Made by a program: the position numbers and the translations under genes. Below, one piece after another: positions 24,932 to 48,761 of a stretch of 64,000 bases of DNA (positions are counted from its first letter, which is position 1; each line of letters begins with the position of its first letter). The notes under the pieces are model-generated. The model saw only the letters and a program-made list of their open reading frames with translations. It had not been told where the DNA came from and did not search any database. This stretch comes from Treponema sp. (GTDB lineage Bacteria; Spirochaetota; Spirochaetia; Treponematales; Breznakiellaceae): NCBI GenBank assembly GCA_031267685.1, contig JAIRYV010000064.1:62001-126000 (forward strand). The letters are read 5' to 3'.

Positions 24932-26275
24932 TTATACATAGCTATTAAAGGAAAGGTATATCAATTCTGGATGGTACTCAAAGTGCATGGTGTCATACGT
25001 CGCCCATTTGCCACCCCAAATAAAACCCTCATCCTCAAAGATGCGTACCACAGAATCAGGAGGATTCAGCTTATCCTCTTCCGGCACTGTGCGGAAGTCA
25101 ATGCCCTTTTGCTGGGTCCAAAGCCAGTAAGTCTCCTTGCCCGGCTGTGACTTCATCAACAAATCAATCGCCACACCGTAAGAATGAAAGCTGCGGCTGC
25201 TGCTCCCCGCAATATTCCGCCAATTCCACGCGCCAATGCTGTCTAATGATTGTTTCCACACCGCGATCTCTTCGTTCTCCTTTTCAAGCTCATTGATGCG
25301 CTGCTCAACCCGCGCCAACGGCACAACAGTCCGCTCATGTACGGTTACCGCGCTTCCCAAAAACCTGATAGTCTGTTGATGCGCAAACGCCTCTGTACGA
25401 GTTTCACATTGAAGGAGCTTCTCATAAAAGTTTGAACGAACCGCACCAGAAGCAGCGCGACCATATCCACGACTTACCCTATCCGTAAAAATACTCCGAC
25501 GCCAGAAAAGCTCCTCAGCAGCTTCCCTCCACGTATTACCCTCCGCTGTATCATCAGCAAATTCCGTAACATAACGGGATAGAGACTGAGAACGAAAGCT
25601 CGCCGCCTGTTCAACCTCTGTTTCACTTAACAGTTTGCCCTGAGCATAGTAATACCGCTCCTCATCCATCTCCACGGTCCAATCGCCACCATACAATACA
25701 GGCTCACCAATACGGTCAGGATAGGCTGCTGCAAACGCCTTCATCACCGCTTCGGCCCGTTCACCCGCATCCCGCAACACATTAAGCTCCTCACTAAACA
25801 CCACAAGCAGGGCATCCACCTGTTCACCCACAGGCTTCATGGTAAAGAGCGAAACCCCCGTAAAGCCGCCAACCCCGCCAGCGTGTATCACACGCGGCCG
25901 GTATATCTGTTTTTCAAAAAGATCGCTGTAATCAGCATCATCATCTACGCCAGTCCAGAACGGAATGACAATACCGTCAAAAAAATCAGCGTTTGACAAA
26001 AAAGTCTGCATTGGCAGGGCTATGTCATTGTCAATGATTGAAGCACCAACAAAATAGTAGCGATACGTCCGCAAATCAGGCAACTCTTGCTTACCTTCAA
26101 TATCAAACAAGGCGGAACCGGTCTTCTCAGCAAGCAGTTTCGCCACCCGCCGCGTTTCAGCCGTTTCTGAATAATAAAATACCACGCTATCTGTTTCTTC
26201 CGGATACTCTTCAGCACAGGCTGCCAGCGCAAGAACGAGTATATATAGTATGGTACAATGCTTATAGTGTATCAT
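24932..26275 (-). CDS. Lipoprotein fusing a flavodoxin-like domain to an M15 (VanY-type) peptidase domain
   Basis: ATG 26275 opens a lipoprotein signal (lipobox LAAC, Cys20). An in-frame extension of 47 residues upstream is rejected because it runs into the neighbouring gene. Residues 31-160 look like a flavodoxin: VVFYYSETAETRRVAKLLAE is the FMN-phosphate loop region, then DLRTYRYYFVGASI and IVIPFWTGVDDD. Residues 350-440 are an M15C-like D-Ala-D-Ala carboxypeptidase: SRSFHSYGVAIDLL and WGGKWATYDTMHFEYHP give zinc ligands His364, Asp371 and His431. A coiled segment (about 318-340) precedes it. It would sit in the envelope facing peptidoglycan. I know of no such fusion; see findings. Confidence 0.85.
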   Translation of the reverse strand: MIHYKHCTILYILVLALAACAEEYPEETDSVVFYYSETAETRRVAKLLAEKTGSALFDIEGKQELPDLRTYRYYFVGASIIDNDIALPMQTFLSNADFFDGIVIPFWTGVDDDADYSDLFEKQIYRPRVIHAGGVGGFTGVSLFTMKPVGEQVDALLVVFSEELNVLRDAGERAEAVMKAFAAAYPDRIGEPVLYGGDWTVEMDEERYYYAQGKLLSETEVEQAASFRSQSLSRYVTEFADDTAEGNTWREAAEELFWRRSIFTDRVSRGYGRAASGAVRSNFYEKLLQCETRTEAFAHQQTIRFLGSAVTVHERTVVPLARVEQRINELEKENEEIAVWKQSLDSIGAWNWRNIAGSSSRSFHSYGVAIDLLMKSQPGKETYWLWTQQKGIDFRTVPEEDKLNPPDSVVRIFEDEGFIWGGKWATYDTMHFEYHPELIYLSFNSYV

Positions 26276-26339: not shown

Positions 26340-27272
26340 CTATAACGTAACCACATAATTAACCACAAACCCGGTAAACAGAGACCACAGCATGACAAAC
26401 GCAAGATAGAGAACAAAGTTTTTTAAGCCCAGAACAATTTTAACCGCGCCTAGGTTAGTAACCTTTGTGGCAGGTCCGCTGATCATAAACGCAGCGGCAG
26501 ACCCCATACTCATCCCGCTGTCCAGCCAGGCCATAAGCAGCGGGATAGTTCCACCGCCGCACATATAAAGAGGGACGCCTATCGTGGCTGCCATAAGCAG
26601 CCCGAAACCTCGATTCTTGCCAAAGAGCGCAGCCATCGCGTCTTCAGGCACATAGCGCTGAAAAAGAGCGGAAAGCACTATCCCTATCAGGAAATACAAC
26701 CCAGTTGCCTTGATGTTACGCCCAATGTTTTTAAGCACCCGTAGAGCAAAATGAGGGTCAGTATCGTGATTTTCCGGCGCCCTGAAGCCAGCAAAGTTAA
26801 AAAACGCCTTGCCCTTATACAAGTACCTGACGCAAAGCCCAGCGGCAATCCCGCACATAAAGCACGAAACAAAACGGATAACCAAGGCTGTTGTTCCCAA
26901 AGCCGCGCTGTAAAATAAAAGCTGTGGATTGAGCAGAATCGAACTCATCATAAAGGCGGCAAGCATAGGTTGCAACGTAAGCGCATCGCTCTCTTCGCCC
27001 GTTTCCGCAAAAGAGGCTGCAATGGGGATTGTGCCGTACATACACAACGGCGAAACAATGCCTATAAGCGACGCTGGAACAAGCCCCAACACTCCGAGCC
27101 TTTTCCGCAGATACACGCCCAGAAGCGCGTGTATCTGCGCCTTACCAAAGACAGAAATAAGCGAACCAAGCAGTATGCCAAGCGCATAATACCCAGCTAT
27201 CTGCTCGAATTGCAGTCTGGAATAGTACCAGAGATAGATCACCTCGCGTTGGATAAACTCAACCATTGACAT
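26340..27272 (-). CDS. Permease of the DUF318/ArsP-like family
   Basis: About eight membrane segments with the paired family repeats: PASLIGIVSPLCMYGTIPIAASF in the first half and ATIGVPLYMCGGGTIPLLMAWL in the second, each with a conserved cysteine near GT(I)P. Members export organoarsenicals or are of unknown function. ATG 27272 (or 27266) is preferred because a well-translated 31-residue ORF overlaps it; a TTG at 27311 would extend it. It lies 64 bases upstream of the fusion lipoprotein on the same strand, so the two may be cotranscribed. Confidence 0.82.
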   Translation of the reverse strand: MSMVEFIQREVIYLWYYSRLQFEQIAGYYALGILLGSLISVFGKAQIHALLGVYLRKRLGVLGLVPASLIGIVSPLCMYGTIPIAASFAETGEESDALTLQPMLAAFMMSSILLNPQLLFYSAALGTTALVIRFVSCFMCGIAAGLCVRYLYKGKAFFNFAGFRAPENHDTDPHFALRVLKNIGRNIKATGLYFLIGIVLSALFQRYVPEDAMAALFGKNRGFGLLMAATIGVPLYMCGGGTIPLLMAWLDSGMSMGSAAAFMISGPATKVTNLGAVKIVLGLKNFVLYLAFVMLWSLFTGFVVNYVVTL

Positions 27273-27354
27273 TGACCAATTCGTAGACAAGACTACCCAG
27301 ACTAATTTCAACTAAGCCCAGCGTGCTTATCAAAGTTGTTTTCATAATCGTCAT
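27259..27354 (-). CDS. Possible 31-residue leader peptide overlapping the permease start
   Basis: ATG 27354 is preceded by a strong ribosome site (GGAGG, 6 bases). The frame MTIMKTTLISTLGLVEISLG ends in VYELVNVNG and a stop at 27259. It overlaps the permease start codon by 14 bases, so its translation would feed ribosomes to the permease. It lies just downstream of a promoter-like sequence. It may be a leader or just a translated 5' region. Confidence 0.5.
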   Translation of the reverse strand: MTIMKTTLISTLGLVEISLGSLVYELVNVNG

Positions 27355-27430
27355 TATTAACCTCCAGATCAATGATGTAAAGACTATACATCTTAAAGTC
27401 AACTCTAGTCAAGCACTTTTTGCATTTTTT
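27344..27430 (-). promoter_or_regulatory. Promoter and ribosome-site region, copy 1, ahead of the permease leader
   Basis: Leftward TTGACT (27412-27407) and TATAGT (27388-27383) are 18 bases apart, followed by GGAGG and ATGACGATTA. The whole stretch is repeated about 370 bases upstream. Confidence 0.6.
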
Positions 27431-27694
27431 AGGACGTGTGTCAGCCCTTGCGCTATACCCACTTAAAGGTATACTATCATAATGATAATTACGATTCATA
27501 GCTCCATACCCAAAGACTGAAACTTTTTGGCGATATTGATAAAGCAACTCAATGAAAACATGTTTGCAGACCATGAAAACATGTAATTGGTGGTTGCAAT
27601 TCATGCTGTATAATCGCAACTTTAACATTTTATACTGTTTTGTAACGTTGTACCAAGGGCATTTGACTGGGAAATGATACTACACTTGTTTTAT

Positions 27695-27805
27695 CCAGCT
27701 CAGTTTGTTCTTATAATCGTCATATTTACCTCCAAGGCAATGAGGTAACCATTATACATCTTAAACGCGACTATGCATCAAGTGTTTTTTGCGTTTTTTA
27801 GAAAG
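27695..27805 (-). repeat. Diverged copy of the permease promoter/leader region
   Basis: It matches 27320-27430 in order: the A-rich CTAAAAAA block, a CTTGA box, TTTAAGATGTATA, GGAGGT and ATGACGATTA. Its -10 is a perfect TATAAT. The peptide start is cut to MTIIRTN and a stop. The 270 bases between the copies hold no gene. Confidence 0.75.
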
Positions 27806-47717: not shown

Positions 47718-47858
47718 ACTAAGCTCTCCTTTAAGCAATGGTATAGTCGTGCATGTTAATGTACTACGTCAGCATGAATTGTTGATGCTTGAACTAGTAT
47801 TTATGATAAACTTTCTTTCTGTTTTTGTAAAGAGGTAGTTTTTCTATAGGTCGGCAGC

Positions 47859-48048
47859 TTTATCCCTCCGCAAGGAAAGTTTATCCTTCCGCAAGGAAAG
47901 TTTATCCCTCCGCAAGGAAAGCTTATCCCTCCGCAAGGAAAGCTTATCCCTCCGCAAGGAAAGTTTATCCTTCCGCAGGGAAAGTTTTGCCGACATGTCT
48001 GTAGCTTTATCCTTCCGCAAGGAAAGTTTTGCCGACATGTCGGCAAGC
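47859..48048. repeat. 21-bp tandem array (CCGCAAGGAAAG type), followed by a 33-bp interruption and one more unit
   Basis: Six near-identical 21-bp units TTTATCCCTCCGCAAGGAAAG (some CTTATCC, CTTCCGC or CAGGGAAAG) run from 47859 to 47984. Then TTTTGCCGACATGTCTGTAGC, another unit, and TTTTGCCGACATGTCGGCAAG follow. The last part contains the palindrome CCGACATGTCGG. It adjoins a second, different 21-bp array. Confidence 0.9.
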
Positions 48049-48077
48049 TTTACCAGCATAGCTAGAAAGATAATCGA

Positions 48078-48550
48078 CCTGATGTGGAAGGTTACTGGCC
48101 TGACGGGAAAGCTCTCCGGCCTGATGTGGAAGTGTACTAGCCTGACGGGAAAGCACGCCGATCTGACGTGGATGGTTACTGGCCTGATATAAAATCTCTC
48201 CGGCATGATGTGGAAGTGTACTAGCCTGATAGGAAAGCTCTCCGGCATGACGTGGAAGGTTACTGGCCTGACGGTAAAATTTATCGACATGACATGGAAA
48301 TTTGCTGGCCTGACCGGAAAGTTCTCCGGCCTTACGTGGATGGTTGCTAGCCTGACGGGAAAGTTATCCGGCCTGACGTGGAAGGCTGTCGGCATGATGT
48401 GGAAGTGTACTAGCCTGACGGGAAAGCTCTCCGGCCTGACGTGGATGGTTGCTGGCCTGACGGGAAAGCTCTCCGACCTGACGTGAAAGGCTGTCGGCCT
48501 GATGTGGAAGTGTACTAGCCTGATAGGAAAGCTCTCCGACCTGACATGAA
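48078..48550. repeat. 21-bp tandem array of about 22 units in two alternating forms
   Basis: About 22 units of 21 bp alternate, with variation, between CCTGACGGGAAAGCTCTCCGG and CCTGATGTGGAAGTGTACTAG or ...GGTTACTGG forms (each read separately). The period is divisible by three, which opens long low-complexity frames on both strands. It sits past the 3' end of the sensor kinase. Bases 48551-48761 hold no supported gene. Confidence 0.93.
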
Positions 48551-48761
48551 AATTTTTCAGCGCAGAGAAAGAAGTAACGGAATTCACTACACAGTTATCA
48601 ATGAGGTGTGACGAAATCTGGACGCTTAGAGGCGAAGGCTATACCGGTAAAGCCTGTCCCGTCATTATTGTTCAGGTTCCCCACCAGCCCCATATAAACT
48701 CCTCTGTTGCGAGAACAAACGTCTCTGTCCGACGATATGTTCAGAATGTTTATCATATCAA

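What the first reader, a model, noticed from the sequence alone, without database searches (positions are those of the whole stretch)
24932..26275. Lipoprotein that fuses a flavodoxin-like domain to a D-Ala-D-Ala carboxypeptidase-like domain
An FMN-type electron carrier fold with SETAETRR in the phosphate loop and an M15C peptidase with all visible zinc ligands share one lipid-anchored polypeptide. Flavodoxins are normally cytoplasmic. A redox domain facing peptidoglycan could gate the peptidase by redox state, or the flavodoxin part could have lost FMN and bind another ligand. I know of no described protein with this order.
Basis: partly seen in the sequence, partly recalled or inferred. Interest (0 to 1): 0.7.

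Follow-up and report, generated by a model that had tools for sequence, protein, structure and literature searches.

The report
Cell-wall peptidase with flavin-less flavodoxin stalk
A termite-gut Treponema makes a lipid-anchored cell-wall-cutting enzyme whose front half descends from an exported flavodoxin that has lost the sites that hold its flavin, so it is most likely a structural or docking module rather than a redox switch.

Summary
The fusion is real. One 447-residue ORF on the minus strand (window 24932-26275) carries a lipobox (LAAC, Cys20), a flavodoxin-like domain (about 29-165) and an M15_4 peptidase with intact catalytic residues (H364, D371, D428, H431, invariant in 52 relatives). 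AlphaFold models of this protein and of a 45%-identical relative both give the flavodoxin fold. The same fusion occurs in at least 40 of 200 genomes of the family, including a complete genome whose length matches cultured Treponema primitia ZAS-2, and arose once (100/100 support). It is not an assembly error.

The redox-gate reading is not supported. Flavin-contact motifs of related stand-alone proteins are gone: Trp-Trp in 24/24 stand-alone versus 0/27 fused; phosphate-loop Ser in 24/24 versus 8/27; the 90s-loop motif is replaced by a variable stretch. A new Trp107 appears in 25/27. Yet the domain is under purifying selection (dN/dS 0.18-0.29). Exported flavodoxins are common in spirochaetes, so the location is not odd.

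Best reading: a membrane-tethered peptidoglycan peptidase in which an FMN-less flavodoxin remnant replaced the flexible linker of its paralogues and serves as a folded stalk or docking domain: a new domain architecture built from known families.

The parts
24932..26275 (-). Fused lipoprotein gene, 447 aa: signal, flavodoxin-like domain, shared middle region, M15_4 peptidase
   Evidence: ORF and translation; ATG start aligned with start of same-genus relatives
26216..26275 (-). Lipoprotein signal peptide, residues 1-20, lipobox LALAAC with Cys20
   Evidence: Sequence; lipobox-type Cys in 24 of the 25 homologues whose N-terminus is not cut by a contig end, one of them atypical (LTRC) and one read from an uncertain start; L014 has a membrane anchor instead
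25781..26191 (-). Flavodoxin-like domain, about residues 29-165 (b1 30-35, a1 39-52, b2 55-58, b3 73-81, a3 87-95, b4 102-108, a4 117-123, a5 146-170)
   Evidence: AlphaFold2 model and Foldseek; profile-profile match to Flavodoxin_4
26150..26170 (-). Remnant of FMN phosphate loop, residues 36-42 (SETAETR); Ser36 kept in 8/27 fused vs 24/24 stand-alone
26015..26044 (-). Position of the PxWW flavin-stacking loop, residues 78-87 (ASIIDNDIAL): Trp-Trp lost in all fused homologues
25955..25957 (-). Trp107, new near-invariant residue at the end of b4 (25/27 fused, 0/24 stand-alone)
25922..25954 (-). Position of the 90s FMN loop (CTHxGSG in stand-alone proteins), residues 108-118: replaced by variable, indel-rich stretch
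25406..25762 (-). Middle region, residues 172-290, shared with unfused Treponema M15 proteins
   Evidence: Homologues without flavodoxin domain align from residue 172
24974..25207 (-). Peptidase_M15_4 domain, residues 357-434
   Evidence: Pfam 3e-19; phmmer to Ply500 2VO9
25184..25186 (-). Zinc ligand His364
   Evidence: Invariant in 52 sequences; aligned with the Ply500 zinc motif
25163..25165 (-). Zinc ligand Asp371
24992..24994 (-). Predicted catalytic Asp428
24983..24985 (-). Zinc ligand His431
26340..27311 (-). ArsP_1-type permease gene immediately upstream, same strand; also adjacent in G028, degraded in G002 and not detected in the G004 locus, so not an obligatory partner (start codon uncertain)
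   Evidence: Pfam 8e-35

Best explanation
The gene encodes a lipid-anchored, extracytoplasmic peptidoglycan peptidase of the M15_4 kind (zinc L-Ala-D-Glu endopeptidase or D-Ala carboxypeptidase; the exact bond cut is not determined). Its N-terminal domain descends from an exported Flavodoxin_4 protein that was joined once, in an ancestor of termite-gut treponemes, to an existing secreted M15_4 peptidase. The domain kept the flavodoxin fold but lost the flavin-stacking and 90s loops, so it most likely no longer holds FMN. It replaced the flexible linker found in the unfused paralogues and now acts as a folded stalk or docking module that sets the distance between membrane and catalytic domain and may bind an envelope partner. 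Shown: fold, intact active-site residues, single origin, loss of FMN motifs, purifying selection. Inferred: lipid anchoring, absence of FMN, stalk or docking role.
For: M15_4 3e-19 with active-site residues invariant in 52 sequences. Flavodoxin fold in two models: pLDDT 88.9, pTM 0.84, E 1.5e-5 to PDB flavodoxins; and 89.9, 0.86, 4e-6. In both models the last helix of the flavodoxin domain (146-170 and 157-180) runs almost directly into the first helix of the shared region, so the join looks rigid. Trp-Trp 24/24 stand-alone vs 0/27 fused; Ser36 24/24 vs 8/27; Gly39 20/24 vs 8/27; in fused proteins the three FMN loops carry 2.97, 2.91 and 2.85 bits against 3.44 for the rest of the domain, in stand-alone proteins 2.90, 3.20 and 2.69 against 2.79. 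dN/dS 0.18-0.29 for the N-domain, 0.11-0.16 for the peptidase. Fused proteins are one branch, 100/100, in an 88-row peptidase tree. Unfused paralogues have a signal followed by short or low-complexity linkers in place of the domain. The closest stand-alone relative is a membrane-anchored Flavodoxin_4 with Trp-Trp kept (L139/L161, 68 bits). In the window's genus the fused gene is the only M15_4 gene found (5 incomplete genomes), so it probably covers that role there.
Against: Loss of motifs is indirect evidence: flavodoxins without the stacking Trp can still fold and have been crystallised (the Anabaena W57L and W57E mutants; entry titles). The phosphate-loop Thr (23/27) and the following Arg (25/27) are kept, and a new near-invariant Trp107 next to the old pocket could mean a repurposed site rather than a plain scaffold. 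The stalk role rests on the comparison with linkers, not on a direct test. The bond cut is unknown.
Confidence: 0.55

Rival explanations
1. The old flavin pocket was remodelled to bind another ligand (a phosphate-bearing metabolite, a muropeptide or a peptide of a partner), and ligand binding regulates the peptidase.
For: Thr41 and Arg42 of the phosphate loop largely kept (23/27, 25/27); Trp107-Thr108 at the end of b4 near-invariant; strong conservation around DF.DG..IPFWT. Rigid domain join in the models. HmuF and FldH show that flavodoxin-fold proteins can take on new ligands (heme, though with FMN kept; PMC10404700).
Against: The loops that would line the pocket are the least conserved part of the domain and have indels. 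Loop 1 is variable.
Confidence: 0.2
2. The domain still binds FMN or receives electrons from an extracytoplasmic redox chain and gates the peptidase by redox state.
For: Fold and partial phosphate loop; the window protein fits the classical phosphate-loop pattern. In two lineages the gene lies beside an exported DUF362 gene, in one of them with a polyferredoxin and TatC, and none of these was found in 670 kb around unfused M15 genes.
Against: Flavin-stacking Trp-Trp and the 90s-loop motif lost in 27/27. The neighbourhood is not conserved in most lineages; DUF362 occurs in 2-7 copies per genome and is a remnant or absent next to the gene in the window's own genus.
Confidence: 0.12
3. The fusion is an assembly or annotation artefact, or the N-domain is a decaying passenger.
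For: The window's genome is a fragmented, 82% complete assembly.
Against: Uninterrupted in at least 40 genomes of 17 genera, one of them a complete 4,059,867-base genome; dN/dS 0.18-0.29 in the domain.
Confidence: 0.02

Closest known systems
Peptidase_M15_4 (PF13539): Ply500-type L-Ala-D-Glu endopeptidases such as 2VO9 and LysB4 6AKV
   Same: Zinc triad and catalytic Asp, GFxWGGxW and DxxHFE motifs
   Different: Cellular, lipid-anchored, with a flavodoxin-like domain and a middle region in front; bond specificity unknown
Unfused Treponema M15_4 paralogues (for example L048, L064, G042:C1:225588)
   Same: Share residues 172-442, mostly at 40-47% identity
   Different: No flavodoxin domain; signal followed by a short or low-complexity linker
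Exported Flavodoxin_4 (PF12682) proteins of Spirochaetota (L117, L118, L139) and Bacteroides structures 4J8P, 4ICI, 3KLB
   Same: Same fold and order of elements; profile match E 1.2e-17; the spirochaete ones also carry export signals or membrane anchors
   Different: They keep PxWW and the 90s-loop motif and stand alone; the fused domain lost both and lacks the long a2 insertion
FGE-sulfatase plus Flavodoxin_4 fusion in another spirochaete (L157, G130)
   Same: Another exported enzyme-like domain joined to Flavodoxin_4
   Different: Different partner, flavodoxin at the C-terminus
HmuF/FldH of Fusobacterium nucleatum (PMC10404700)
   Same: Flavodoxin superfamily protein put to a new use
   Different: Cap domain, binds FMN and heme, in heme catabolism; no peptidase

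Membership tests
Peptidase_M15_4 (PF13539) | Profile score above curated cut-off | tested here: met
   69.8 bits against 25
Peptidase_M15_4 (PF13539) | Zinc ligands His, Asp, His and catalytic Asp | tested here: met
   H364, D371, H431, D428 invariant in 52 sequences, aligned with 2VO9
Peptidase_M15_4 (PF13539) | Peptidoglycan peptidase activity and bond specificity | not testable with these tools
   needs biochemistry
Flavodoxin fold superfamily | Five-stranded alpha/beta flavodoxin fold | tested here: met
   AlphaFold2 models plus Foldseek, E 1.5e-5 and 4e-6, TM up to 0.69 by target
Flavodoxin_4 (PF12682) | Profile score above curated cut-off | tested here: not met
   16.7 bits against 24 for the window protein; the G028 homologue reaches 30.7 with neighbouring stretches
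Flavodoxin_4 (PF12682) | FMN site: phosphate loop S-x-x-G-x-T, PxWW loop, 90s loop T-x-x-GSG | tested here: not met
   Trp-Trp 0/27, Ser36 8/27, 90s motif absent
Flavodoxin (functional sense) | Binds FMN and carries electrons | not testable with these tools
   needs purified protein
Bacterial lipoprotein | Lipobox with Cys after a hydrophobic signal | tested here: met
   LALAAC; lipobox-type Cys kept in most homologues; lipidation itself not testable

The most novel reading that the evidence does not exclude
A flavodoxin fold that lost its flavin has been turned into a sensor or docking domain whose remodelled pocket (Thr41, Arg42, Trp107) binds an envelope ligand or partner and switches or positions a cell-wall peptidase in termite-gut spirochaetes.
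Probability: 0.18. Interest if true: 0.65.

Novelty: new variant of a known kind. Interest (0 to 1): 0.38.

Why it matters
It is a single-origin case of a redox carrier fold losing its cofactor motifs and being reused in the cell envelope, in a lineage with a cultured member (the G042 contig length, 4,059,867 bases, equals that of Treponema primitia ZAS-2, PMC5039349), so the FMN-loss claim and the role of the domain can be tested. It also corrects the idea that flavodoxins outside the cytoplasm are unusual: exported Flavodoxin_4 proteins are common in Spirochaetota, and I found no paper on their function in the library searched.

Tried and rejected
Assembly error or separate genes: rejected. 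Phage origin: no match to the protein in 50,697 phage records. Decaying passenger: rejected by dN/dS. Conserved operon as a guide to function: neighbours differ between genera; the ArsP_1 permease beside the window gene is shared with G028, found at full length in the G001 locus, degraded in G002 and not found in the G004 locus; DUF362 linkage occurs in two lineages only and is decayed or lost in the window's genus. Intermediate unfused proteins with a partial flavodoxin domain: N-terminal extensions of the unfused ORFs were read and looked like signals and low-complexity linkers. Literature searches for a described flavodoxin-M15 fusion or exported flavodoxin lipoprotein returned nothing relevant. 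The DUF2145 Pfam hit (16.6 bits, cut-off 25) was taken as noise. Searches were failed requests and gave no data.

Full report
What is there. The ORF is on the minus strand, 26275 down to 24932, 447 residues. It starts with a hydrophobic signal ending in LALAAC, followed by a flavodoxin-like stretch from about residue 29 to 165, a region from 172 that is shared with other Treponema peptidases, and a Peptidase_M15_4 domain at 357-434 (3e-19).

Is the flavodoxin call right? Yes for ancestry and fold. A profile of 24 fused N-domains aligned with a profile of 13 stand-alone Flavodoxin_4 proteins at E 1.2e-17 and found solved flavodoxins, best 4J8P at 1.2e-11. AlphaFold2 on an alignment of 52 homologues, containing no stand-alone flavodoxin, gave pLDDT 88.9 and pTM 0.84 with the flavodoxin order of strands and helices, and Foldseek returned flavodoxins at 1.5e-5. 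The G042 homologue, 45% identical overall, gave the same result with pLDDT 89.9 and E 4e-6; its alignment did include a few stand-alone flavodoxins.

Is the fusion real and how common? The same architecture was found in relatives in two independent searches. In the family-wide search I counted 40 of 200 genomes, in 17 of 57 genera, with a match that begins inside or before the flavodoxin domain; this is a lower bound because some contigs are cut and the list is truncated. One of them is a single contig of 4,059,867 bases, the published length of Treponema primitia ZAS-2 (PMC5039349); the match of length is my basis for the name. In a tree of the peptidase part of 88 proteins the fused ones are one branch with 100/100 support, so one joining event explains all. 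Many of these genomes also keep an unfused M15_4 paralogue, but in the window's genus the fused gene is the only M15_4 gene found in all five (incomplete) genomes.

Does the domain still look like a flavin carrier? No. In 24 stand-alone Flavodoxin_4 relatives the PxWW loop is present in all; in 27 fused proteins in none. Ser36 of the phosphate loop is 24/24 against 8/27, Gly39 20/24 against 8/27. The 90s loop, CTHxGSG-like in most stand-alone proteins, is a variable stretch with insertions in the fused ones. Instead Trp107, at the end of strand 4, is 25/27 against 0/24. In stand-alone proteins the FMN loops are about as conserved as the rest of the domain or more; in fused proteins they are clearly less conserved (2.85-2.97 bits against 3.44). 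The window protein's SETAETRR fits the classical phosphate-loop pattern (pattern from memory), but most other fused homologues break it. Still, the domain evolves under purifying selection, with dN/dS 0.18-0.29 in six groups of close relatives, against 0.11-0.16 for the peptidase, so it is used for something.

Peptidase. H364, D371, D428 and H431 and the surrounding motifs are invariant in 52 sequences and align with the zinc and catalytic residues of the phage endopeptidase Ply500, 2VO9 (residue roles from general knowledge of the family). The enzyme is therefore probably active. Which bond it cuts cannot be told from sequence.

Export. In this phylum it is not: many Flavodoxin_4 proteins found here carry signal peptides or membrane anchors by eye. 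The best-scoring stand-alone relative, L139/L161 in a genome of the same family, is membrane-anchored and keeps the Trp-Trp pair, and is the kind of protein from which the fused domain may have come. It is not next to an M15 gene.

Surroundings. In the window an ArsP_1 permease lies just upstream on the same strand. The same pair is in G028, with an exported DUF362 gene before it. In G002 both the permease and DUF362 are remnants; G001 has the permease; neither was found in the G004 locus. A second lineage has the fused gene beside a Tat-signal DUF362 protein, a polyferredoxin and TatC. No such genes were found in 670 kb around unfused M15 genes. DUF362 occurs 2-7 times per genome, and the neighbourhood is not kept in most genera, so this is a lead and not evidence of a shared pathway.

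Most likely working. Unfused paralogues have a signal and then a linker, often low in complexity. In the fused clade a folded domain takes that place behind a lipid anchor. I therefore think the domain is a stalk or docking module that holds the peptidase at a set distance from the membrane or brings it to a partner. This is inference; ligand sensing by a remodelled pocket is the main rival, and redox gating is unlikely.

Novelty. Both families are known, and no described protein with this order was found in the searched papers (a limited library). I file it as a new variant of a known kind: an M15_4 peptidase with a new accessory domain that is flavodoxin by descent and fold but fails the flavin-site test.

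Noticed in passing
L157 (G130) 463-1968, + strand: An exported FGE-sulfatase domain fused to a C-terminal Flavodoxin_4 domain in another spirochaete; a second enzyme-like domain joined to an exported flavodoxin.
   Followed up: partly
L041 5890-6300, + strand: An exported Flavodoxin_4 ORF directly upstream of the fused gene that lacks about 60 internal residues including the PxWW loop; possibly a decayed relative of the fused domain.
   Followed up: partly
L034, L038, L041, L045 near the fused gene; L163 11074-12078: Exported DUF362 genes next to the fused gene in two lineages, in one of them with a polyferredoxin and TatC; none in 670 kb around unfused M15 genes.
   Followed up: partly
window 27320-27725, - strand: Two similar short starts (GGAGGT..ATGACGATTAT..) with stops soon after, upstream of the permease; possibly remnants of the DUF362 gene that sits at this place in G028.
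   Followed up: no
window 47844-48587, - strand: ORF made of repeats of HVRPESFPVRLVHFHI and LSLRKDK type; low-complexity repeat, coding status unclear.
   Followed up: no
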